In this document: in pieces, positions 1-17,512 of the stretch
How the letters are laid out: the number at the start of each line of letters is the position of its first letter
How positions within the stretch are numbered: the first letter of the stretch is position 1
Source: a virus
Reading direction: 5' to 3' (one strand)
Virus record (IMG/VR): IMGVR_UViG_3300030107_000680
Location: 1-23,106 of that record
DNA length: 23,106 nucleotides
Made by a program: the position numbers and the translations under genes
Notes under the pieces: model-generated
Told to the model about the DNA's origin: nothing
What the model saw: only the letters and a program-made list of their open reading frames with translations
Database searches by the model: none

Positions 1-462
1 GCTAACTTAAACAACAGACAGCAAGCACAAGCACAACAAGCACAGGCGTTCCTGCAGATGGACATGGCTAACTTAGACAACGAACAACAAGCTGTTATGT
101 TTGAAGCACAATCATTAGTACAAAGTGTGTTCTCTGATCAAGCTGCAGAAAATGCACAGCTACAGTTTAACGCTGAGAGTATCAACCAAGTTAACCAGTT
201 CTTTGATAGTTTGTCTACACAAGTTAATCAGTTTAATATAGCACAAAGCAACGCTATGGAGCAGTTTAATGCAGGTGAAGAAAACTCTATGGCTAAGTTT
301 CAAGCTGAACTAGACAATCAGCGTGATTTATTTAACTCACAGAACGAACTGGTAATAGCACAGGCTAACACAGCGTGGAGACAATCTATAGCTACAGCTA
401 ATACGGCTGCACTAAACGAAGCTAACATGGCAGAGGTCATGGCTGCTAACGGCATGTCTATG
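1..462 (+). repeat. Fourteen tandem 33-base (11-codon) degenerate repeats
   Basis: Cutting the frame-1 translation every 11 residues gives fourteen aligned units without a gap. Position 1 is F or A in eleven of fourteen units, position 2 is mostly N, and the last position is mostly Q or M. Bases 1-27 and 67-93 also still resemble each other at DNA level, with a 66-base spacing (two units). Elsewhere the repeat survives mainly at protein level, so it is old or constrained by helix geometry. Confidence 0.75.
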
Positions 463-708
463 CAAGGCTTGGCTGAGTTGTGGCAACAAGAGCGTGACTT
501 AATGAACTTTGCGTGGACTACTGCAGAGAACGCTATGACTAGAGATCAAGAGTTAGTTATAGCTAAATTAAAAGAGGATGGTGACGCCGACACTGCTTTT
601 ATGTCTTCAGCAGGTAATTTCTTGTCAGCAGTAGTAGGTGCTTTTGCTCCTACATTTGGAAGAACAACTACCACTACAACAATAGCAGCAGCAACAGGTG
701 CAGAATAA
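1..708 (+). CDS. Virion protein with tandem 11-residue repeats (5' end outside window)
   Basis: The reading frame is open from base 1, so the gene is 5'-truncated and the ATG at 58 is probably internal. The visible 235 residues are rich in Gln, Asn and Ala. The first 154 split cleanly into fourteen 11-residue units, usually beginning FN or AN (FNIAQSNAMEQ, FNAGEENSMAK, ANTAWRQSIAT). This spacing is typical of long amphipathic helices or hendecad coiled coils. A Gly/Ala-rich hydrophobic stretch (SSAGNFLSAVVGAFAP) and a Thr/Ala tail close the protein. Similar Q/N/A-rich helical proteins, ending in an ELWQQERD-like segment, occur next to tail and internal core genes of marine podoviruses. A role as a structural or injected virion protein is inferred from that and from the downstream genes. 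The exact function is not recognised. Confidence 0.75.
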   Translation, partial: ANLNNRQQAQAQQAQAFLQMDMANLDNEQQAVMFEAQSLVQSVFSDQAAENAQLQFNAESINQVNQFFDSLSTQVNQFNIAQSNAMEQFNAGEENSMAKFQAELDNQRDLFNSQNELVIAQANTAWRQSIATANTAALNEANMAEVMAANGMSMQGLAELWQQERDLMNFAWTTAENAMTRDQELVIAKLKEDGDADTAFMSSAGNFLSAVVGAFAPTFGRTTTTTTIAAATGAE

Positions 709-723
709 CTAAGGGAATAGCTT

Positions 724-2904
724 ATGGCTAACTCACTAGATCAAATAATTCGAAACTTTTTTAATCGCATAACTGGCGGTGATGACGAAGAAACCGTTGC
801 AGAAACAAGGGCAGATCAAGGAGGTCTTATGGCTCCTCGTGTTGTGCGTCCAAGAGTAAGACCAGAAGATGTAGAACCTATAGGTGGTGCAATCACAGGT
901 GCAGCTAGTACAGGAAATATAGCTTTAAAAAGATTTGTAGATGGACTAAACGAAGCTACAAAGATAGATGTTTCCCTGCGTCCACGAGCACGTCCTTTAG
1001 AAAATACTTTAATAGATGCAAACTTATCAGCAGATACATTACAGCTTAAACACAATATGCCTTTGTATAAGTTTCAACAAGAAAACGAAACAGGGTCTGA
1101 CGATGGTTCAACAATAAAACTGTTTTCTGCGCCTACATCAGATGCGGCTATAGATGAGATTGAAGCAAAAACTTCTACAATCTTTAACAAAATAAAAGAA
1201 AAAGTTAAGGCTGATAGAAGAGGAATAGAAGCTTTAGACCCAGCTACTTCAGCTATGGCTTTAGGAGTAATACCTGTAAAAGGTAAAAGTTATACACCCA
1301 CCATAAAAGATGCTCAAATTATGTTAGATTCTGCAGGATATAATGTAGGTAAGATAGATGGTATTGATGGACCGTTGACTCAAGCTGCTGTAAAAGCGTT
1401 TCAAAAAGATGCAGGTTTTACAGGAAGAGATGTTGATGGTAAGTTTGGCCCCAAAACACTTGCAGCATTTATACAAAAAAATCCACAAATAACTAAAGAA
1501 GAGTTACCTAGTAAACCTTTATCTGAGCCTCTTGTAAAAAGACAAGAAACAGACACTATTAAAGTAACTAAAGCAATTACGAGGTTTCCTTATTTAAATA
1601 AAATAATTGATAATAAATATATAGATTTGGCAACATCTACGCCAGCTAAACTATTAATGAAAAATATAATGGGCTTAGACAGAAATATGTTAATGGGTAA
1701 CACGCCTATACCCATAACGGAAACATCTTTTAAAGAAGACGAGTTGCAACACTTTAGAAATATGTGGAATAAATATGGTGCAGGATTAATAACAAAAGGA
1801 CAGCAAATAGATAGCGTAAATGACGCTATGAATATAATAACAGGTAAAGATAAAGCACCATATGGTTTACCTGCAGATATTAGAGCGTATTATTCTGTAG
1901 GAGATACAAATTTATATCAAGATGAAAATGGAGATGTAATATTAAAAGATATATATGACTATAATCTGTACACTGATTACACTGCAGACCCAATAATAAA
2001 TCCAGACACAGGTGAAAAAGAATATCCTAGATTAAAAACAGAAGAGTTTGAAGCACCAGAGTTAGGATTTTCTACAGCTAAAGGTATAAAAGATACACTA
2101 CAAGCATTTACTAGTGGCAAGATAGGTTTTCTATCAGCCGCACACAATCTAGGTTTTTTATTGGGTAGTAGAGATTATCAAGATCCTGAGAAAGATCAAG
2201 GAACACCTATGTTAATTAATCTTGGTAATCCTGAAACATGGGATGAAGAGGGAAAACCAAAAGCTTCAGAAGATATAGATATTATGGGGCTTCCTAAAGG
2301 AGAGGGTTTAATGACAAAGCCCAAATCTAGGCCAGAAGATTTAGAACCTATAGAACCTGAAGATAGTGTAAAAATAGGAAATCTAGAAATATTGATGAAA
2401 GATAGAACGCAAATACCTGCAGAAGGCAAATTAAAAATTTCTCTTGATTTTAATTCTTTTGCTGGTGGAAAAGGTGTTGAAATAATAATTCCAGATGATG
2501 CTTCCTCAGAAGTAATAGCTGCTGCTAAAAAATATGTTGCAGGAGTAAAAGATTTTTTTGATGCAAATGGTTATGGTAATTATAAAATAAGAGATGGTGG
2601 TAAGTATGGTTCAGGTATTTATACTACATCTGAAAATAAAAAAAGACGTGACAGTAATTTAGGAGGAGTATCAAATACTATTCATACAGAACCTTTCTTT
2701 CATCAAGACGCTAAAGCAGAGAAAATCGTAGATGAAAACTTTGAAAGTTTTGCTAAGTTGCATTTAGATGCATTTGGTGATTTATCTGCAAGGATGATTA
2801 TACCTCACGGCGCAAAAGGTAATCCTGTGGGTGCTTCCTCTAAAACTTTTGGAAATGAATATGAGTACGGTAAACGTATGATAGATACTCTAATGAGGTC
2901 TTAA
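724..2904 (+). CDS. Peptidoglycan-binding-domain virion protein, possible cell-wall hydrolase
   Basis: This 726-residue protein starts at an ATG preceded by AAGGGA. A PG_binding_1-like domain spans about residues 192-254, with the usual DAQIMLDSAGY, IDGIDGPLTQAAVKAFQ and DGKFGPKTLAA pattern; this family binds peptidoglycan in hydrolases and virion proteins. The C-terminal 180 residues look like a compact separate domain with GVSNTIHTEPFF (His654, Glu656); it resembles phage cell-wall hydrolase domains, but I cannot assign it to a family. Low-complexity Pro/Arg segments occur at 33-52 (GGLMAPR to RPEDVEP), 82-92 and 528-545 (GLMTKPKSRPEDLEP). The middle and C-terminal parts are far more AT-rich than the first 100 bases of the gene. 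In-frame ATGs at 829 and 2311 each have a good ribosome-binding sequence, so shorter products are possible. It sits 3 bases before the holin-like gene. Binding role likely; catalysis uncertain. Confidence 0.65.
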   Translation: MANSLDQIIRNFFNRITGGDDEETVAETRADQGGLMAPRVVRPRVRPEDVEPIGGAITGAASTGNIALKRFVDGLNEATKIDVSLRPRARPLENTLIDANLSADTLQLKHNMPLYKFQQENETGSDDGSTIKLFSAPTSDAAIDEIEAKTSTIFNKIKEKVKADRRGIEALDPATSAMALGVIPVKGKSYTPTIKDAQIMLDSAGYNVGKIDGIDGPLTQAAVKAFQKDAGFTGRDVDGKFGPKTLAAFIQKNPQITKEELPSKPLSEPLVKRQETDTIKVTKAITRFPYLNKIIDNKYIDLATSTPAKLLMKNIMGLDRNMLMGNTPIPITETSFKEDELQHFRNMWNKYGAGLITKGQQIDSVNDAMNIITGKDKAPYGLPADIRAYYSVGDTNLYQDENGDVILKDIYDYNLYTDYTADPIINPDTGEKEYPRLKTEEFEAPELGFSTAKGIKDTLQAFTSGKIGFLSAAHNLGFLLGSRDYQDPEKDQGTPMLINLGNPETWDEEGKPKASEDIDIMGLPKGEGLMTKPKSRPEDLEPIEPEDSVKIGNLEILMKDRTQIPAEGKLKISLDFNSFAGGKGVEIIIPDDASSEVIAAAKKYVAGVKDFFDANGYGNYKIRDGGKYGSGIYTTSENKKRRDSNLGGVSNTIHTEPFFHQDAKAEKIVDENFESFAKLHLDAFGDLSARMIIPHGAKGNPVGASSKTFGNEYEYGKRMIDTLMRS
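819..831 (+). promoter_or_regulatory. Internal Shine-Dalgarno and in-frame ATG (codon 36)
   Basis: AAGGAGGT followed by CTT and ATG lies in frame inside the 726-residue gene and is a stronger ribosome-binding sequence than the one before the annotated start. The same bases encode the Gly-Gly-Leu-Met motif, so the resemblance may be a by-product of the codons. Use as a second start is only possible, not shown. Confidence 0.3.
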
Positions 2905-2907
2905 CTA

Positions 2908-3351
2908 ATGCTAGGCTTACCACTAGAACTTATAACTATGCTCTTCTCTACCTTGCTAGGTGGAGTGATGTCTATCTGGGGTCAAAGCATGAAGAACCGC
3001 CAAGAGCAAAACAAGATGATGCTTCAGACTGCACAGTTTAGAGCAGATCAAGTTAACACAGCAAGAGAGGCAGGTAAGAACGACAGTCACTTTGCTTGGA
3101 CACGTAGGCTTATAGCTTTGGCTGCTGTGTTTAGCATCATAGTACTACCAAAGTTAGTAGCTGTGTTCTATCCTGAAGTAGGCGTATATGTAGGATACAC
3201 AGAGGCAACAGGTGGAGTTTGGAACTGGTTGTTTGGACCAGACGAAGCAATTAAGTGGAAGATGGCACAAGGCTTTGTGATAACGCCACTAGACACACAT
3301 ATAGTATCAGCGATTGTAGGGCTGTACTTTGGTGCAGGATTTACTAAGTAG
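2908..3351 (+). CDS. Three-helix membrane protein, holin candidate
   Basis: This 147-residue protein has three hydrophobic segments: about 5-24, 67-88 and 129-145. Between the first two is a charged, Gln-rich stretch (KNRQEQNKMM to AREAGKNDSHF), which could be a helical hairpin outside the membrane. Size, three helices and a position between a peptidoglycan-binding protein and further virion genes fit the 3-TM holin type known from alphaproteobacterial phages and gene transfer agents. Holins form lesions in the inner membrane that time lysis. No sequence motif is diagnostic for holins, so the call rests on topology and context. The start overlaps no other gene and follows the previous stop by three bases, with GAGGT upstream inside the preceding gene. 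It could instead be another membrane-inserted virion or injection protein. Confidence 0.5.
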   Translation: MLGLPLELITMLFSTLLGGVMSIWGQSMKNRQEQNKMMLQTAQFRADQVNTAREAGKNDSHFAWTRRLIALAAVFSIIVLPKLVAVFYPEVGVYVGYTEATGGVWNWLFGPDEAIKWKMAQGFVITPLDTHIVSAIVGLYFGAGFTK

Positions 3352-3360
3352 GAAAATGAA

Positions 3361-4041
3361 ATGGCAGCATCTGTATTTAATGGTTCACTACCTGGAAACT
3401 CTTTAACGACACACGCTACAGGTGATCGTCCTTGGGAACGTCCACCACAACTTAATAGTGTTGAGGAGTCTCTAGGTTTTTATATGACACAGCTTTCAGA
3501 TCAAGACACACTAGATGACCTACTAGTTGCTATACAGTCAGGTGTTCCTATTAAACCTTTAGTAGAGGCTCTTTATACATCCAGTGTTATGAAGGGTGTG
3601 CATAGTTTAGACGTAGGTTTACTGATTGCTCCAGCGCTCATGGAATACTTTGCTGCTGTAGCAGATAGCTACGATATAGAGTATAAGTTTTCTAATCGTG
3701 ATCCTAAGAAAGAGATGCTACAAAAAGAACGTGCAAGAGTTACCATGCTACTTGATGCAGCTATAAACAGAGCAGAAGAGCAAGACACGGTAGACGAAGG
3801 CACAGAGTTACTTAGAGACATGGCAGAGTACACTAGAAGTGATATGTCTAGAGCAGAGGCAGCAGATGTTGCACCTGAAGAAAATATAGAAGAAACTGAA
3901 CCAGAAGCAGATGTGCCTATGGATGAACCTGTAGAAGTAGAGCAAAATCCAGATATGGATCAAGCACCACAACCACAACAAGAAGAAGAAGTACCACCAA
4001 AGCAGCCAATGCAAGGTGGTGGTCTAATGGCAAGAGGATAA
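3361..4041 (+). CDS. Conserved acidic hypothetical protein with C-terminal GGGLMARG
   Basis: This 226-residue protein has a folded N-terminal part (about 1-150) and a disordered, strongly acidic, Pro/Gln-rich tail that ends PMQGGGLMARG. The N-terminus (FNGSLPGNSLT followed by DRPWERPPQ) is a pattern I recognise from uncharacterised proteins in many marine podo- and myoviruses, where it lies with virion genes. No enzyme motif is visible. The acidic tail could be an assembly or packing region that binds basic partners, by analogy only. The final bases AAGAGGATAA provide the ribosome-binding sequence for the next gene, 6 bases on. The terminal GGLM motif recurs in both large neighbours. Function unknown; the gene itself is secure because of its length, start signal (TAGGAAA before the ATG) and tight packing. 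Confidence 0.8.
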   Translation: MAASVFNGSLPGNSLTTHATGDRPWERPPQLNSVEESLGFYMTQLSDQDTLDDLLVAIQSGVPIKPLVEALYTSSVMKGVHSLDVGLLIAPALMEYFAAVADSYDIEYKFSNRDPKKEMLQKERARVTMLLDAAINRAEEQDTVDEGTELLRDMAEYTRSDMSRAEAADVAPEENIEETEPEADVPMDEPVEVEQNPDMDQAPQPQQEEEVPPKQPMQGGGLMARG

Positions 4042-4047
4042 ACTACT

Positions 4048-5526
4048 ATGGCTAATTGGAAAGCTTTTGCTGCAGGGTTTTTGTCTGACCAAGCAAGTCA
4101 AATTAACGAGCGTGTTGCACGAGCACAAGAATACGAAGATAAACAGAGAGAAGAGTTTGAGCGTAGTAAAGCTACCTTTAAAAAAAGGCTAGGCGTAGTT
4201 AACAACACTCTCATGCCTACTGTTAGTAATTTAAAAAGACTAGGTGCTACAGATATGCAAATTAGGGCTGCAGTAGCTAATGGACCAGAGACTATAATGG
4301 AGTTTTACGACACATTGGACACTGCAGCTAAAGGTATGAATAAAGACAGGTTGACTGTATCAGAGATAGATGCACTTGTTGATATGCCAGAAACTTTTGT
4401 AGGCAGAGATGATTTATCGTTACACGAATTTATTGCACAGACATATGGTTTAACTAAGCCTGACATAGGAAGCACTAAAGACCCTAACAGAAGTTTCTTA
4501 TCTAGAGCACTAGGTTTAAACTTACAAGATCAGGTACGTGCTAACTTAGATAGAGAGGCTCGTTACAATGGTTACTCTATAATGGACTTAAACGAGTTAG
4601 CTGCAGAAGATGCTTACAATAGTCTAGTGCCTAACACATATTTTAGACTTACGCCAGGTAAAACTTATAGTGCGCCTGACGTGCTTGATGATTTTAATAG
4701 AGCTATTGCAGTAACAAGAAGACAAGTGCAGGATGATGAAGCGTATAAAGATTTAAAGATAAAAGACGCTGATGCAGCAGCAAATATGATGGAAAACTCT
4801 TTATATCCTATTATAGAGGCATACACTAGAGATTACGGCATAAACTTTTTAAACGATAAAAAGTTATACGGTTTAGAAACCCTTCTTCCAAACAGATTTA
4901 AAGAGCTAAGAACTGTACTACCTGACGTAGAAACTGCAAACGCGATAATAACTGAGTCACTAGGAGATGGTGGTGCAACTGCATCAGCCCCTTACGTAGG
5001 TGAAGATGGAAAAACCAAACTTGCTACTTTTACTATGGATATAGATGGTAATGTTGTGTCAGGTAAAATAGGAAATCAATCTTTGATGCCTGAAGACGCA
5101 GATAAAGTATTTAGAGATTTAGTGGCTGGCGGTTATATAAAAGATGTTAGTTTTTCTAAAGGTGTAGAGGGTTCTTTAGTAACTGAAGACGATGTGTTTC
5201 CTGATACTAGAACAGTAGATAGTGCGTTTATACAAGCAGACGAAGGTGGGTTACTTAAACCTAGAATAGACGCTCCACCAAGACCAGAAAAAGACCCTCC
5301 CTTTTTTAGAAGACTTAATGTAGGAGGTAAAGAGGCAGAGGATATTCTTAAAGGTGCATACACTACTGCTCAATTAGCTAAATCATTAACACAAAAAGCT
5401 TGGGATGATTTATTTGGAGACACGCATAATCCAGATGGATCACTAAAAGACCCTGATGCAGCTTCTAGGATAGGTGATATAAACATAACAAAAGTTCCTG
5501 AAAGAGATGAAGATGATAGCCGTTGA
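4048..5526 (+). CDS. Likely virion structural protein of unknown function (492 aa)
   Basis: This mostly helical, charged protein begins MANWKAFAAGFLSDQ and continues with a Glu/Arg-rich, coiled-coil-prone stretch to about residue 50. No catalytic motif is visible. Near residue 400 a flexible Pro-rich segment begins with GGLLKPR and continues APPRPEKDPP, matching the linear motif in the 726-residue protein and the end of the 226-residue protein. The last 80 residues are hydrophilic. Position in the virion cluster and the shared motif suggest a core, tail or ejected protein. I do not recognise a family with a known role. The start has AGAGGA upstream at suitable spacing, supplied by the end of the previous gene. 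Confidence 0.7.
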   Translation: MANWKAFAAGFLSDQASQINERVARAQEYEDKQREEFERSKATFKKRLGVVNNTLMPTVSNLKRLGATDMQIRAAVANGPETIMEFYDTLDTAAKGMNKDRLTVSEIDALVDMPETFVGRDDLSLHEFIAQTYGLTKPDIGSTKDPNRSFLSRALGLNLQDQVRANLDREARYNGYSIMDLNELAAEDAYNSLVPNTYFRLTPGKTYSAPDVLDDFNRAIAVTRRQVQDDEAYKDLKIKDADAAANMMENSLYPIIEAYTRDYGINFLNDKKLYGLETLLPNRFKELRTVLPDVETANAIITESLGDGGATASAPYVGEDGKTKLATFTMDIDGNVVSGKIGNQSLMPEDADKVFRDLVAGGYIKDVSFSKGVEGSLVTEDDVFPDTRTVDSAFIQADEGGLLKPRIDAPPRPEKDPPFFRRLNVGGKEAEDILKGAYTTAQLAKSLTQKAWDDLFGDTHNPDGSLKDPDAASRIGDINITKVPERDEDDSR

Positions 5527-5595: not shown

Positions 5596-6195
5596 ATGGT
5601 AAGACACATAATGGCGTATTCTTTAGTATTTGGTATAGGTTTGCTTACAGGAACTGGACTTATGATGGACGTAAGTCATAAAGATTATGCACCTGTAATA
5701 GAGGCACACGGCACATATCAAATAGAACAACCAAAACATAGTGGTTCTTTTAAAACTAAAGAAGAGTTTGTTTCTACTTTAAAACCACTAGCAGAAAAAC
5801 TATCTAAAGAGATAGGTATAGACGAGCGTATTATAATAGCACAGAGTGCCATCGAAACAGGTTGGGGTGCTAAAGTAAAAGGTAATAGCTTTTTTGGTAT
5901 AAAGGCACACGGCAAACCAGGTATATCTTTTATTACTCACGAAGTTATAAATGGTAAAAGAATTAAAATGTGGGATAGCTTTAGGGCTTATAGCAGTTTA
6001 GAAGAAAGCGTACAAGATTACGGTAAGTTTTTACAAACTAATCCTAGATATAGATATTTTTTAGCAGCTAAAACAGTTGACGAACAAATAAAAGCTTTGG
6101 GTAAATCAGGATACGCAACAGACCCTAATTATGCTAAGAAGATTAAACGTATTGTCAAAGGACCGACGCTTAAAAGACTAGGTGGATATACATGA
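5596..6195 (+). CDS. Membrane-anchored or secreted endo-beta-N-acetylglucosaminidase (GH73-like)
   Basis: This 199-residue enzyme would cut the glycan strands of peptidoglycan. Residues 51-190 match the glucosaminidase fold (FlgJ C-terminal/GH73): AQSAIETGWG with the likely catalytic Glu87, NSFFGIK at 97-103, WDSFRAYSSLEES at 126-138, and GYATDPNYAKKI at 172-183. Residues 6-24 form one hydrophobic, Gly-rich segment after a short basic start, either an uncleaved signal-anchor of the signal-arrest-release type or a normal signal peptide. ATG codons 1 and 6 are both possible starts. A promoter-like site lies upstream. The stop overlaps the ATG of the 1200-residue internal protein by four bases (ATGA), so the two products are probably made together. 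It may be the lysis endolysin or a virion enzyme for DNA entry. Confidence 0.85.
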   Translation: MVRHIMAYSLVFGIGLLTGTGLMMDVSHKDYAPVIEAHGTYQIEQPKHSGSFKTKEEFVSTLKPLAEKLSKEIGIDERIIIAQSAIETGWGAKVKGNSFFGIKAHGKPGISFITHEVINGKRIKMWDSFRAYSSLEESVQDYGKFLQTNPRYRYFLAAKTVDEQIKALGKSGYATDPNYAKKIKRIVKGPTLKRLGGYT

Positions 6196-9100
6196 CAGAC
6201 ACTATTTCATACGAAGAGTTTAAAAAACTTTACAACGCAGGACGTTTTAGCGGTGGTAAAAAACCAAAGAACGCAACGACTATAACTATTAGTGAAGATA
6301 ATTTTGAAAGCGATATACCTGAAGGTGATAAATTAAAAAAGAAAGATCTGTATAGTTATAAGAATCTTAACACTATAAGAAACTACATGTCTAGAAGTAA
6401 GGGTGTAGATTACAAAACTGCTGATCCTGAAAAAGTTGTAGAGGATTTTGTAGATCACATGCGTTATTTTAATAGTAACTCTATATCTACTGCAGGAGAA
6501 GTAATGTTTGTTTCTCGTGGATCTGACGAGGACAAGTATGCAGCTAAAGAAGCGTATAAGTTATATGATAGTTTAGGTAACGTGTTTGTTAATGACGGTT
6601 TTTATGGTGCTGTAGATGGTGTATTTGATTATGTTTACTCTGCAGTTACAGACCCTACAAATTACTTGGGTGCGTTCACTGCTGGATACGGTAAAGCTGC
6701 AGCCGTTGGCATCAATCAATCTAGTCGAGCATTAGTTAAAAAAGCCGCATCAAATGCTATGTTAAAAGCCGCACGATCTGGTGCTACTAAAGAGATTGCA
6801 CAAAAAGCAGCAAAAGAAGCTGGTGAAGCTATGTCTCAAAAGATGATAGCTAACAGTGCTAAGAAAGAGGCTATAGCAAAACAGTCAGAACAAGCTGCAA
6901 AAGAAGCATACAGAATTGCCGTATCAAAAGCTGCATCTAAAGGTGCAGACGATTTTATAAAAGGGGAGTTTAAGAAACGAGGCAAAAGAGCCGTAGCTTA
7001 TACCACTGCTTATGATGCTTTGTTTGCAGGTGTACAAGCAGATGCAATACAAAATGTATATCTTGATGTAGGAGCACAAGATAAATACAACCATCTTGAA
7101 ACTGCTTTTTCTACTTTACTAGGTGGTGTAGGCGGTGGGTTGCACTATGCCTTTGGAAAGTTTGAGAGTAAGTCAGGGTTAGGTGCTGGTATGCAAGAGC
7201 TTAATGCTGCATCTCGTGCAAAGGAACAACCACTTAAGGTAATAAGTAACCTGCAAGATCAATTAAAAAAACTTAAAAATGATAAAGCTCCAAAGGAAAA
7301 GATAAAAATTATAGAAGCTAGAATTAGAGATCTTAAAAAGAAAACTATTGGTCCTAAGATTTTGAGTGACTCTGCACAAAAACAAGCAGAAAAGGTTATG
7401 AAAGAAAACCTAGATTCTTGGGCTTCTAAAGTAGAGCGTGGTACATACAAGCTAGGTAACGATGCAATGCCAGAGGGTATGCTGCACGAAATACTGTTTG
7501 GTGCTGACGGTAAAGGTGGGCTGCAAAAAATATTTATTGACAACGGTATAAAACTAAAACGTAACACAACCGTGTCAGACATGGCAACTAATATCATAAG
7601 ACACATGGATGATGACTATTTACAGGATCTATCAGAAACCATGTACGATGTGTCTAACATACACTTAGGTGATTTAGATGGTCTAGCTGTTGACATAGGA
7701 GATGTTATGGCTAGAGAGATCAGCAGAGCAGGTGGTACACTTTCTGTTATGTCTCAGTTTAGACGTGCCATAGATGGTGGTGTCGTGTCTGGTAACGAGA
7801 TACTTACGGACTCTCTAAATAATAAAGCTGTTAGAGATACTTTAGAAAGTGAGTTTAAGTTAGCTAAAAAAGCAAAGCCATTTACGTATGGACAAAGTCT
7901 TTGGAAACGTTTACTTGTGTCTTCACCTGCAACTACTGCAGCAAACGTTATGGGCTTTGGTCAGTTTTATGTAGGTCAAACAGTATCAGATATTTTAAGT
8001 GGTGGTATGTTAGCTGTTAGCGCTACGCTATTACACGGTGGAAAAAGAACAAAAGAAGGTAGAGAGCTTATAAGACAAGCAGGTGTATATAAGCAAATAC
8101 AAGCACAAAAAATGCTAAATTTATTAGATCCTTTTACTACACACAATGCGTACATGGACTTTTTAAATAAACATAAAGATGTAAAAGGTTTACTGCACGA
8201 AACTATTGGTGCTGCTGTTGAGCGTAGTTCTAAGCGTTATGGTATAGATGAAAACAACACCATAATCTACGGCAAGTATGGTGTAGAAAACTTTGCTAAA
8301 GCTGCTATGAATATTACTGGTGTTCGCATACAAGATAGTTTTACAAAATCTACTATGTTTATGACAGAGATGGATAAATATTTAAGATTAAAGTACGAGG
8401 GAAGAACGCTAACTGATGTTTTAAAAAAGGGAGACTTAGAGGTAATAGATGATGATGTCATAGGTGGTGCATTAGATACTACTATGCGTTCTGTATTTTC
8501 AAAAGATTACACTACAGATGATCAGGCACTTGCAATTGTAGCTAAAAGAGTAGAGCAGTTTTCAAACACACCAGGTTTAGGAACTATATTACCTTTTGGT
8601 AGATTTTTTAATAACGTAGTGGCTACAGCTTATCAATGGTCGCCTCTTAGTTTTTTACCTGCTGCTTCAAGGATTGCAAAAGGAGAGGGTATTAAAGCTA
8701 AAGAGGCACTATCACGTTCTATGGTAGGCACAGCAGCGTTGGGTATGGCTATGCTGCACTCAGAAAAACAGGAGCAAAAGGGATTAGCCTACAATGAAGT
8801 TGAAGTAGGTGGTGGTACAGTAGTAGATGTGCGTAATATATTTCCGTACTCTTTGTTTCTAGCTGTTGGTAGGGCTGCAAACTTAGCTAGAAAAGGTGAG
8901 AGAGTAGGTCAAGAAAACATAGAGGATGTAACTCAACAGCTTGCAGTAGGACAGTTTGCAAGAGATGCACAGTTTGGTAACGATCTTTACAACGTATTTG
9001 ATGTAATACTTAATGCTGATAGAAGTACAGAAGCTGGTGTATCTGCTATGTTAGATGCTATATACAAATCAAGTGGGGGTATAATAGCTGGATTTGCTAG

Positions 9101-9794
9101 ACCTTTAGATGCAGCTAATCGTGCTGTAGGTTTTATGTTTGAGACAGATACAATTAAAGACCCAAGACAGGCTCGTGGTGGCGCTGTATTTACTCAGCAA
9201 GCTACTAAGTATTTTGATAACATACTTGAGGCTTTTATTGACGAAACGGATAACATTACTGGAGAAAAATTAAGAGTAGCAACTCGTGCAGGAGACTTAT
9301 ATGATGCTAATCCATTAGCTCGTATCTTTGGTTTGACTGTGAAAAGAGGCAAGACTGCAGCAGAGCAAGTATACTCTATGGCAGAAATGAAGACATGGAC
9401 TGCAGATAGCAGGACTAAAATGACACAGTATGACAGAGTATTTAACTCAGCTATAGCACCTATACTAGAGGTCAAGATGCAGAAGCTAGTTGAAAGTGAA
9501 AGATTTAAAAAGGCTGATGTAGGTCAACGCAGAGGTATGGTAAAAGATGTAATGGGAAGTGTCCGTAATACTGTAAGAGAACATCTTGATGCTACGTCAG
9601 GCACAGATTTTTTACAAAGACAGAGATACAAGGCATCTACAAAAGGCACAAAAGATCAACAGTTTAAAGCTAAAAAATACATGAAAGATAAGTTTGGAGT
9701 AACAGCTAAATTAGAAAACTTCAGCTATAAAGAATTGCAAATATATAATTCTTACATAGATCACTTAAAATACCTAGACGAAACTAATTTTTAA
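6192..9794 (+). CDS. Large internal virion (injection core) protein, 1200 aa
   Basis: The length, mixed helical composition and last position in the virion cluster fit the huge internal core proteins that podoviruses eject into the cell with DNA (T7 gp16 is 1318 residues). Visible are an Ala/Lys-rich helical region at about 170-260, a Gly-rich hydrophobic stretch near 305-322, a Lys-rich coiled coil at about 348-388, and hydrophobic patches around 580-617 and 843-856 that could contact membrane. No transglycosylase motif was seen inside it. Instead, a separate glucosaminidase gene overlaps its start by four bases (ATGA). A hairpin terminator follows within 10 bases. Assignment is by size, order and composition, not by a recognised domain. 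Confidence 0.65.
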   Translation: MTDTISYEEFKKLYNAGRFSGGKKPKNATTITISEDNFESDIPEGDKLKKKDLYSYKNLNTIRNYMSRSKGVDYKTADPEKVVEDFVDHMRYFNSNSISTAGEVMFVSRGSDEDKYAAKEAYKLYDSLGNVFVNDGFYGAVDGVFDYVYSAVTDPTNYLGAFTAGYGKAAAVGINQSSRALVKKAASNAMLKAARSGATKEIAQKAAKEAGEAMSQKMIANSAKKEAIAKQSEQAAKEAYRIAVSKAASKGADDFIKGEFKKRGKRAVAYTTAYDALFAGVQADAIQNVYLDVGAQDKYNHLETAFSTLLGGVGGGLHYAFGKFESKSGLGAGMQELNAASRAKEQPLKVISNLQDQLKKLKNDKAPKEKIKIIEARIRDLKKKTIGPKILSDSAQKQAEKVMKENLDSWASKVERGTYKLGNDAMPEGMLHEILFGADGKGGLQKIFIDNGIKLKRNTTVSDMATNIIRHMDDDYLQDLSETMYDVSNIHLGDLDGLAVDIGDVMAREISRAGGTLSVMSQFRRAIDGGVVSGNEILTDSLNNKAVRDTLESEFKLAKKAKPFTYGQSLWKRLLVSSPATTAANVMGFGQFYVGQTVSDILSGGMLAVSATLLHGGKRTKEGRELIRQAGVYKQIQAQKMLNLLDPFTTHNAYMDFLNKHKDVKGLLHETIGAAVERSSKRYGIDENNTIIYGKYGVENFAKAAMNITGVRIQDSFTKSTMFMTEMDKYLRLKYEGRTLTDVLKKGDLEVIDDDVIGGALDTTMRSVFSKDYTTDDQALAIVAKRVEQFSNTPGLGTILPFGRFFNNVVATAYQWSPLSFLPAASRIAKGEGIKAKEALSRSMVGTAALGMAMLHSEKQEQKGLAYNEVEVGGGTVVDVRNIFPYSLFLAVGRAANLARKGERVGQENIEDVTQQLAVGQFARDAQFGNDLYNVFDVILNADRSTEAGVSAMLDAIYKSSGGIIAGFARPLDAANRAVGFMFETDTIKDPRQARGGAVFTQQATKYFDNILEAFIDETDNITGEKLRVATRAGDLYDANPLARIFGLTVKRGKTAAEQVYSMAEMKTWTADSRTKMTQYDRVFNSAIAPILEVKMQKLVESERFKKADVGQRRGMVKDVMGSVRNTVREHLDATSGTDFLQRQRYKASTKGTKDQQFKAKKYMKDKFGVTAKLENFSYKELQIYNSYIDHLKYLDETNF

Positions 9795-15469: not shown

Positions 15470-17512
15470 CTAAACGTCCTTGATGTCAAGCCAATTCTTA
15501 CCTATTTTGGCTTCTAATAATAAAGGCACGTTCATTTTTATATCGTATGCCTCTTCCACTAATTTATTAAGATCATCATTCAATGTGTCTATCGTTGCAA
15601 GTACGTACTCCTTTTCGTTTGGGTGAACATCTACTACCACAGAATCATGCACACTGTTAACTATGCCTGACTGCATCTTTTCTAACCTGGCATCTAACTC
15701 AATCAAGACAAGTGGAACTACATCACCTGTAGCGAAGCCTTGTACAGGATAGTTTTTTATCATAGTGAAGTGCGTCACACTGCCATTCTCTCTACGTGTG
15801 ACATCAGGGAAAGCGTACTGCCTACCACTTACGTTAGTTATCTTTTGAAAGCGTAGTGCCTCGTTACCTAAGTCAGTGTGCCACCTAGCTATACCTTTGT
15901 ATTTATCTACGAAGTGCCTGTAATACTCTGCCTCTGCGTTGCTTCTACCGTATCCTGTGGCTCCAAAAAGAGGCGCAAAGGTGTGAGCTTTGGCTTCTTG
16001 CCTAGTTGTAGGTTGCCCTGCATCAGAAATAACTTGGGCTGTGTAGCTGTGTACATCAAACCCTGTCTCTATTTCTTGCATGGCTGTCTCGTCTTGCGAT
16101 AGAAACGCTGCGGCTCTAAACTCAAGCTGGGCAAAGTCAGCTTCCAGTATGTGACCGTCAGTCCAGCGAGAGATAAACACACGTTTTACAGGGAAGGTTC
16201 CTCCTCTTGGCATGTTTTGCATGTTGGGCTTTCGTCCAGAAAATCTACCTGTACTGGTGATATGCTGGGTAAGACCGACATGGAGGAGTCCATCTTGTTT
16301 AGTGTAGGTGGAAATACCATCCACAAAACTACTGAGATAACTGCTAACAGCAGACAACCTTTTAACACCTGTAATGAACTCTTCTGCATTTTTTAGTTCT
16401 CCTTTCTTTGCAACGTGATTGATCATATCTAATCTGTCTTTACTTGTACTAAAACCATTAGCACTAATCCAAGACTTGTTAGGTGCTCTAAACTGTAGTC
16501 CTGCAGCGTGAGATAGTTCTCGTAAGTGATAGCCTTTACCGTCACACTCCTTACATTTAGTAGGCTTGGCGTACTTTGTGCCATCCTTCCTTACTTTAAA
16601 CACTTTCCCTTTACCTGTGCAGCTAGAACATATAACAGCGTATGTCTTGAGTATCATGTCACTGTTTTTTTCTACGGTGTTTTTAAACTCTTCTGGTGTA
16701 TTTACGTGTTCAAACAAGTCAGCCCACTCTTTTTTATTATGTACTCTTCTACCAAATATTACTTGCGACAGTTGTTCTGGAGAGTTTAAATTTATGGGCG
16801 TGTCACCCATTAGTTCTCGCACCTTTTTTTGCAACCTGTCTTCGATTTCGTTACGCTCTTGTTGGAACTCATTACGGACATGTTCGAGGGCGGTAGTATC
16901 CACCCTGAATCCACGCATGTACATTCTTGCAAGGGATTTGCAGGTACGGAAGGTAATGTCTCTGACGTTATGTAAGGAAGTTGAGGCAGGGTCTTGATAG
17001 TCTGCTTCGATCGCTTTGTACAACTCGCCAGTACTATGCAGATCGCAAGACAAATAATGGCTAAGTTCACCCAAGGGAATCTCATTTGTGTTGTATCCTT
17101 TCTTGTAGTATGTCTTGAGAGTGTCATCCTTTTGATATTCTAACTGTCTGCGCTGGGCGCATTGCTCTAAACTTAGTGGTTCTTTCTGTCCACGTTGAAG
17201 TAAATACTCAGCAAGCATCGTGTCGTAGATATCACCATCGTAAGTAAAACCACTAGCCCACAGCCATGACAAATCGTATTGTAAGTTGTGTCCTATCAAT
17301 AACGTTGTAGAGTCAAGCCACCTCTGTAGTTTGCACTTATTGTTTTGCGTGTCATTCCTTTCTTGATGGTCAAAGCAAAGCAGAGACTTCTGTTGGGTGT
17401 CTAGGCACAGCACACCCACCTGTGTGAGAGTATTGCTAGGCTCAAATGGATCGTTGTGTATCTTGCCATCACGTAAAGTGATAGAGTTTTCTACATCAAG
17501 AACTCTTTTCAT
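15470..17512 (-). CDS. Family A DNA polymerase with DnaJ-like zinc module
   Basis: This 680-residue replicative polymerase has intact proofreading motifs: Asp6/Glu8 (LDVENS), Asp80 (GHNLQYD) and Asp157 (YLSCD). The polymerase motifs are TGRFSG at 421-426, motif A with Asp459 (EADFAQLEFR), motif B from Arg504 (RQEAKAHTFAPLFG, with Lys508) and motif C with His622-Asp623 (VHDS). Phe512 corresponds to E. coli Phe762. Phe516 stands where E. coli has Tyr766. Between the exonuclease and polymerase parts, Cys295, Cys298, Cys320 and Cys323 form two CxxCxGxG repeats like the central domain of DnaJ. This feature was reported for phage HMO-2011 and is the best taxonomic marker here. The start overlaps the helicase stop (ATGA). 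Confidence 0.95.
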   Translation of the reverse strand: MKRVLDVENSITLRDGKIHNDPFEPSNTLTQVGVLCLDTQQKSLLCFDHQERNDTQNNKCKLQRWLDSTTLLIGHNLQYDLSWLWASGFTYDGDIYDTMLAEYLLQRGQKEPLSLEQCAQRRQLEYQKDDTLKTYYKKGYNTNEIPLGELSHYLSCDLHSTGELYKAIEADYQDPASTSLHNVRDITFRTCKSLARMYMRGFRVDTTALEHVRNEFQQERNEIEDRLQKKVRELMGDTPINLNSPEQLSQVIFGRRVHNKKEWADLFEHVNTPEEFKNTVEKNSDMILKTYAVICSSCTGKGKVFKVRKDGTKYAKPTKCKECDGKGYHLRELSHAAGLQFRAPNKSWISANGFSTSKDRLDMINHVAKKGELKNAEEFITGVKRLSAVSSYLSSFVDGISTYTKQDGLLHVGLTQHITSTGRFSGRKPNMQNMPRGGTFPVKRVFISRWTDGHILEADFAQLEFRAAAFLSQDETAMQEIETGFDVHSYTAQVISDAGQPTTRQEAKAHTFAPLFGATGYGRSNAEAEYYRHFVDKYKGIARWHTDLGNEALRFQKITNVSGRQYAFPDVTRRENGSVTHFTMIKNYPVQGFATGDVVPLVLIELDARLEKMQSGIVNSVHDSVVVDVHPNEKEYVLATIDTLNDDLNKLVEEAYDIKMNVPLLLEAKIGKNWLDIKDV

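What the first reader, a model, noticed from the sequence alone, without database searches (positions are those of the whole stretch)
1..462. Fourteen gapless 11-residue repeats in a virion protein
The translation from base 1 divides into fourteen units of exactly 11 residues with F/A at position 1 and N at position 2. An unbroken hendecad register suggests a long straight rod or an amphipathic membrane-active helix, as in other 11-residue repeat proteins. It may extend left of the window. For a podovirus injection protein this would fit a tube or sheath crossing the periplasm.
Basis: seen in the sequence. Interest (0 to 1): 0.6.

Follow-up and report, generated by a model that had tools for sequence, protein, structure and literature searches.

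The report
Phage protein with 11-residue helical repeats
The window starts inside a gene of a marine short-tailed phage for a virion-module protein, probably one injected into the host at infection, that carries a long helical array whose length changes between related phages almost only in whole steps of 11 amino acids.

Summary
The 11-residue register is real: its lag-11 peak is matched by 0 of 5000 shuffles. The contig begins inside the gene, so bases 1-708 are only the C-terminal 235 residues. In a 91% identical relative the protein has 1366 residues and the register runs about 30 units further left.

Units 1-4 end a 22-residue repeat; residues 45-154 are true 11-residue units.

Main new result: in 78 relatives with both anchors, array length takes 12 values, 9 of them in one residue class modulo 11, while the N- and C-terminal parts vary freely.

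AlphaFold2 models one 167-residue helix, not a globule. The gene opens a conserved cluster whose 1200-aa member matches an internal virion protein D family. Many relatives end in a Peptidase_S74 domain whose best matches include podophage ejection proteins.

I judge it an enlarged ejection-type protein that works most like the hendecad DNA-pilot tube of phiX174. Neither ejection nor a tube is shown; profile tests for homology to T7 gp14 or P22 gp7 failed, and amphipathicity was not supported.

The parts
1..132 (+). Zone A, C-terminal end: last two units of a 22-residue repeat (N-L-x-N-x-Q-Q core), continuing the register of the upstream array that lies off the contig
   Evidence: the relatives' arrays continue left
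133..462 (+). Zone B: ten gapless 11-residue units; column 1 mostly F (A in the last three units), N at columns 2 and 7, Q at columns 8 and 11; 28% Asn+Gln
145..645 (+). Single predicted alpha-helix, residues 49-215 (167 residues; about 25 nm at 0.15 nm per residue)
   Evidence: AlphaFold2, 54 sequences, mean pLDDT 67.3, pTM 0.26
463..708 (+). Conserved C-terminal segment (W161, R181 nearly invariant) and a short Gly/Ala-containing end; the place where many relatives carry Peptidase_S74
724..2904 (+). ORF of 726 aa with a PG_binding_1 domain (accessory gene; homologs in 26 of the 93 loci examined)
2908..3351 (+). 147-aa ORF of phrog_38283, unknown function
3361..4041 (+). 226-aa conserved partner gene (family A2), found downstream of the repeat gene in 124 of 124 loci with more than 3 kb of downstream sequence
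4048..5526 (+). 492-aa ORF (family A3); position and size as a gp15/gp20-type ejection protein, but no sequence match
5596..6195 (+). 199-aa glucosaminidase-domain ORF (accessory; homologs in 6 of the 93 loci)
6192..9794 (+). 1200-aa ORF (family A4) with a profile match to the internal virion protein D family of pelagiphage HTVC011P (T7 gp16 class)

Best explanation
Bases 1-708 encode the C-terminal end of the first protein of the ejection-protein cluster of an HMO-2011-type podophage. The repeat part is a long array of alpha-helical 11- and 22-residue units. My most likely mechanism: the protein is packaged in the head, leaves through the short tail ahead of the DNA, and its FN-type helices pack side by side (hydrophobic seam of columns 1, 5 and 9; amide-rich remaining surface) into a sleeve or channel that prolongs the tail through the host envelope, next to peptidoglycan-active partners. 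Because each 11 residues is three helix turns, units can only be gained or lost whole without breaking the packing, so the array grows in 11-residue steps. Shown: the register, its extension, the quantised lengths, the helix model, the gene order, the S74 and LysM fusions in relatives. Inferred: presence in the virion, ejection, oligomerisation, the channel.
For: Periodicity. Array lengths between two conserved anchors: 12 distinct values in 78 proteins, 9 of 12 in one class modulo 11 (P <= 8e-7), against 54 N-terminal and 18 C-terminal lengths spread over all classes. One 167-residue helix in the model. Gene order: an A2-family gene downstream in 124 of 124 loci with room, the A4 family in 61 of 70. 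A4 matches the internal virion protein D family: score 44.7, best of 40 column-permuted controls 26.7. Peptidase_S74 at the C-end in 2 of 9 and 9 of 10 relatives scanned. That tail's two best PHROG matches are a virion structural protein and a 'DNA ejection protein'. In other podophages S74 proteins precede genes annotated as injection or ejection proteins; one locus gives phrog_4287 'DNA ejection protein' then a P22 gp20-type PHROG. One relative has a LysM domain at its N-end. SU10 gp20-24 are in the virion and absent after genome release (PMC9509320).
Against: No significant profile match of the repeat protein to T7 gp14 or P22 gp7 type proteins. S74 is also common on tail fibres and the window protein itself lacks it. 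Families A2 and A3 match no known ejection protein. No virion proteomics of any HMO-2011-type phage was seen. Amides do not form one face (resultant 0.11; 4152 of 5000 column permutations reach it). The upstream zone is modelled as broken helices.
Confidence: 0.5

Rival explanations
1. It is an external trimeric rod: a fibre or needle-like appendage, folded with a C-terminal intramolecular S74 chaperone in many relatives.
For: Peptidase_S74 is common on tail fibres; hendecads suit long coiled coils; the gene lies just downstream of fibre and lysozyme genes in several records.
Against: The best PHROG matches of the S74 tail are virion-structural and DNA-ejection families rather than fibres; the gene opens the block with the internal virion protein D relative; Pfam found no fibre domain other than S74 in 44 relatives.
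Confidence: 0.17
2. It is an internal head protein that lines or compacts DNA or scaffolds the core, with a long helical array but no channel.
For: Very rich in Asn and Gln (28% in zone B against 8.4% on average in four neighbouring ORFs); long disordered-looking N-terminal halves; T7 shows that such small proteins bridge core and portal (PMC11784390, passages).
Against: Does not by itself explain LysM and S74 fusions or the whole-unit length steps.
Confidence: 0.23
3. Ordinary low-complexity drift: repeats expand and shrink by slippage without structural meaning.
For: Composition is biased to A, N and Q; at least one record is misannotated as huntingtin.
Against: F at unit position 1 and N at position 7 are conserved across relatives down to about 31% identity; codons of residues repeated at lag 110 match no more than background (0.46 against 0.44), so the units are old, not recent slippage; exact register holds over 13 to 40 units.
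Confidence: 0.05

Closest known systems
Uncharacterised gp25 of Puniceispirillum phage HMO-2011 and its homologs in CRP-, HTVC-, phiM6-, CHOED- and MQM1-type podophages
   Same: Same family: 27 of 50,697 phage records match; same C-terminal array and same downstream gene block
   Different: Array length differs in 11-residue steps; in the table the homologs are annotated hypothetical protein, except one misnamed huntingtin and one without a feature
phiX174 DNA pilot protein H (H-tube)
   Same: Works like: 121-residue helix with three 11-residue units rich in Gln, delivers DNA across the envelope (PMC7354561, passages and introduction)
   Different: No sequence match in PDB searches; H has hendecads and heptads, decameric, ssDNA phage; here no heptads and amides are not on one face
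P22 gp7 / T7 gp14 class ejection proteins
   Same: First gene of an ejection block; S74-bearing proteins occupy the P22 gp7 slot in other podophages; Gly/Ala-rich C-terminal end
   Different: Mostly much longer; lag-11 repeats absent from T7 gp14 and P22 gp7 (z 0.7 and 0.8); no profile similarity
phrog_4287 'DNA ejection protein' (Salmonella phage 7-11 gp20 type)
   Same: C-terminal S74 tail shared with relatives CRP-738 and CRP-212
   Different: No hendecad array in 7-11 gp20 (lag-11 z -0.1); the upstream parts do not align
Internal virion protein D (T7 gp16 class), pelagiphage HTVC011P gp34
   Same: Profile match of the 1200-aa neighbour, not of the repeat protein
   Different: Applies to window 6192-9794 only

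Membership tests
HMO-2011 gp25 family | Sequence homology over the C-terminal array | tested here: met
   H5: 54.8% identity over window residues 1-199, E 3e-45
HMO-2011 gp25 family | Same gene order: repeat gene, A2, A3, A4, then opposite-strand replication genes | tested here: met
   for HMO-2011 gp23 (A3 position) no A3-family hit was listed, so that step rests on position
P22 gp7 / T7 gp14 ejection proteins | Position at the head of the ejection gene block | tested here: met
   A4 matches internal virion protein D; A2 and A3 unassigned
P22 gp7 / T7 gp14 ejection proteins | Profile similarity to the family | tested here: not met
   (18 of 100 permuted controls reach the real score); no PHROG ejection hit for whole relatives
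P22 gp7 / T7 gp14 ejection proteins | In the virion and ejected into the host | not testable with these tools
   no proteomics seen for this group; Kang et al. 2013 is not held
P22 gp7 / T7 gp14 ejection proteins | Predicted transmembrane helices | not tested
   no predictor run; the C-end merely looks hydrophobic
Peptidase_S74 proteins | S74 domain above Pfam cut-off | tested here: not met
   window ORF: no Pfam hit; met in 2 of 9, 9 of 10 and 9 of 44 relatives, the three sets overlapping
Hendecad coiled coil | 11-residue periodicity without heptads | tested here: met
Hendecad coiled coil | Hydrophobic seam at 3-4-4 spacing | tested here: inconclusive
   columns 1, 5, 9 hydrophobic 0.92, 0.38, 0.67; resultant 0.48, 494 of 5000 permutations reach it
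phiX174 H-type DNA tube | Amide residues on one lumen-facing side | tested here: not met
   resultant 0.11; 4152 of 5000 permutations reach it
phiX174 H-type DNA tube | Oligomeric alpha-helical barrel | not testable with these tools
   only single chains can be modelled

The most novel reading that the evidence does not exclude
A dsDNA podophage has a modular-length DNA conduit: an ejected protein whose helical array is built of interchangeable 11-residue units, 13 to about 60 in different phages, so that evolution sets the length of the envelope-crossing channel in discrete steps. It would be an independent counterpart of the phiX174 H-tube and a kind of ruler in a phage class that has no tape-measure protein.
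Probability: 0.2. Interest if true: 0.8.

Novelty: new variant of a known kind. Interest (0 to 1): 0.5.

Why it matters
HMO-2011-type phages are described as among the most abundant marine phage groups (PMC9038755, passages), yet how they cross the envelope with a tail of about 9 nm (measured on the related MQM1, PMC10410586) is, as far as I found, not described. If the array forms the conduit, its length is written in the genome as a unit count, which makes structure, envelope thickness and host directly comparable across phages. Even without that, the family gives a clean natural data set on how long helical repeats evolve under a strict register.

Tried and rejected
Considered and rejected: a heptad coiled coil (lag 7 z 0.6); an amphipathic membrane helix (moment not above shuffles); homology to T7 gp14, P22 gp7 or six S74-bearing ejection-type proteins by profile; homology to any solved structure by sequence (repeat protein; neighbours). 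A PDB fold search with the window model gave one meaningless hit (E 7.8). The viral fold library gave four matches at E <= 0.001: three look like relatives by length and identity, A0A218MLQ0 (23% identity) was not checked; tape-measure proteins come only below that threshold. T7 gp14-16 and P22 gp7, gp20, gp16 have no lag-11 peak (z -0.6 to 1.3); the ORFs of 120 residues or more in the fetched parts of pelagiphages HTVC011P and HTVC010P gave none passing the threshold, and roseophage SIO1 one minus-strand ORF with a weak peak (z 3.3, no lag-22 peak), not pursued. The Pseudoalteromonas H6/1 S74 protein has weak lag-11 and lag-22 peaks (z 2.9 and 3.9), not pursued. The anchor scans missed many members by regex: one search scored 58 of 93 loci; one search scored 88 of 159, some mis-anchored; one search scored 78 of 159. 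The other 81 lack an anchor by my pattern and are not in the quantisation count. Exceptions: 230 (4 proteins), 318 (1), 667 (1, L018, which lacks two residues in one unit).

Full report
What is there. The window is a whole virus contig of 23,106 bases and its first base lies inside a gene. Frame 1 from base 1 is open to the stop at 708: 235 residues, open at the 5' end. In 14 consecutive 11-mers the identity autocorrelation peaks at lags 11, 22 and 33 (z 5.6, 4.6, 3.6; 0, 0 and 4 of 5000 shuffles), with nothing at lag 7. F or A opens 12 of 14 units and N is second in 8 of 14; the joint count of 8 is reached by 0 of 10000 shuffles.

The rest of the gene. A scan of viral contigs found 483 relatives, of which the best 80 were kept; 27 of 50,697 phage records match. 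L003, 91% identical, encodes 1366 residues, with the register running from about residue 772 to 1311. The array has two zones. Upstream is a 22-residue repeat with the core N-L-x-N-x-Q-Q (lag 22 z 11.0 and lag 44 z 11.5 in L003; lag 11 only 2.8) and, in L018, a 110-residue super-repeat (z 21.6). Downstream is the FN-type 11-residue repeat. The first four units of the finding are the end of the 22-residue zone.

Whole-unit lengths. Between a motif before the array (LPIAQxD type) and the WR motif near its end, 78 of 159 family members carried both anchors by my patterns. Their distances are 152, 163, 174, 185, 218, 229, 317, 339 and 449 (all 9 modulo 11; 72 proteins), with exceptions at 230 (4 proteins), 318 (1) and 667 (1). 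Counting each distinct length once, 9 of 12 fall in one class, P <= 8e-7. In the same proteins the N-terminal part has 54 distinct lengths and the C-terminal part 18, spread over all classes. An earlier anchor pair gave 55 of 58. At residue level F and N are the conserved ladder: among the eight invariant columns of 54 aligned relatives are F56, F67 and F111 (unit position 1) and N51 and N62 (position 7). Codons of residues repeated at lag 110 agree no more than background, so the units are old.

Structure. AlphaFold2 on the window protein with 54 relatives gives a helix at residues 4-22 and then one helix from 49 to 215; mean pLDDT 67.3, blocks of 79-90 between residues 100 and 190, pTM 0.26. 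A model of residues 759-1366 of L003 with 30 relatives has mean pLDDT 51: helix-turn units in the 22-residue zone (block pLDDT about 56-75) and a 114-residue helix over the FN zone at low confidence. The hydrophobic moment of residues 45-154 is not above shuffles. Over 306 distinct units, columns 1, 5 and 9 form a hydrophobic seam (494 of 5000 column permutations reach its resultant), while Asn and Gln at columns 2, 7, 8 and 11 lie on both polar sides (4152 of 5000). No convincing PDB match by sequence or fold.

Surroundings. Downstream on the same strand lie a PG_binding_1 ORF, a 147-aa ORF, the A2 family gene, the A3 gene, a glucosaminidase ORF and the 1200-aa A4 gene; the opposite strand carries a ribonucleotide reductase and a family A DNA polymerase. 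An A2-family gene follows in 124 of 124 loci with more than 3 kb of downstream sequence, and A4 in 61 of 70 with more than 7.5 kb (the A2 and A4 profiles were built from the window and some of these loci). Among 27 reference proteins A4 stood out only with HTVC011P gp34, internal virion protein D (score 50.4, next 25.4). Against a profile of 15 gp34 relatives it scored 44.7, with none of 40 column-permuted controls above 26.7.

The S74 link. Relatives CRP-738 and CRP-212 end in Peptidase_S74 (E 1.7e-10 and 6.9e-7, 2 of 9 scanned), as do 9 of 10 further relatives, one of which (L277) also begins with LysM, and 9 of 44 in a wider scan that shares members with these. The CRP-738 tail matches best phrog_6121 (virion structural) and phrog_4287 (DNA ejection protein), then many tail fibres. 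In the phage collection it hits annotated ejection or injection proteins and fibres alike. In Vibrio phage 199E37-1, Pseudoalteromonas H6/1 and Pseudomonas AH02 the S74 protein stands just before genes annotated as injection, ejection or injection translocase. In L295 the S74 protein matches phrog_4287 (E 1.9e-27) and the next ORF matches a family 'released from the phage upon host infection'. So the domain is compatible with an ejection protein but does not prove it.

What failed. Profiles of the head motif and of the C-terminal array do not significantly match T7 gp14, P22 gp7, SU10 gp21/22 or six S74-bearing proteins; the best weak score of the array was with SU10 gp22, a DNA injection protein (Prob 6.8). 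Membership in the gp7/gp14 family is therefore not claimed.

Reading. The best-supported account is a virion protein at the head of the ejection block, enlarged by a helical array whose length is quantised. The closest working analogue is the phiX174 pilot protein H, whose 121-residue helices start with three Gln-rich hendecads and form a 170 A DNA tube (PMC7354561, passages and introduction). The step from array to tube is inference.

Literature. No paper describing this repeat was found in five searches of the open library; 'HMO-2011' with 'ejection protein' returned none. Passages only were read of PMC9038755, PMC8954989, PMC11784390, PMC10386132, PMC6918029, PMC6256558, PMC10410586, PMC4281155 and PMC9509320. 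Kang et al. 2013 on HMO-2011 is recalled and not held.

Noticed in passing
L277:4001-6355: A relative of the repeat protein carries an N-terminal LysM domain (E 6e-14) and a C-terminal Peptidase_S74, joining a peptidoglycan-binding domain to the array.
   Followed up: no
window 724-2904 and 5596-6195: Two peptidoglycan-related ORFs (PG_binding_1; glucosaminidase) are inserted in the ejection block; homologs are found in only 26 and 6 of the 93 loci examined.
   Followed up: partly
window 820-831, 4018-4029 and 5245-5256: The short motif GGL(M/L) followed by P-R or A-R recurs once in each of three neighbouring proteins (residue 33 of the 726-aa, 220 of the 226-aa, 400 of the 492-aa ORF); G-L-M near the C-end is at least 90% conserved in family A2. 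Possibly a shared processing or packaging signal.
   Followed up: partly
L092:6084-8675 (MW202701.1): The homolog is annotated 'huntingtin', evidently a misannotation caused by Gln/Asn-rich repeats.
   Followed up: no
L018 residues about 560-1150: Longest array in the set: about 20 more units than L003, with a strong 110-residue super-repeat, and one unit that lacks two residues.
   Followed up: partly
window 15470-17512 (-): Family A DNA polymerase with a weak DnaJ CXXCXGXG zinc-finger-like match inside (E 1e-4), as also annotated in HMO-2011.
   Followed up: no
L292:4001-6088: A close relative of the S74-bearing group that lacks the S74 domain, so the tail domain is modular within the family.
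   Followed up: no
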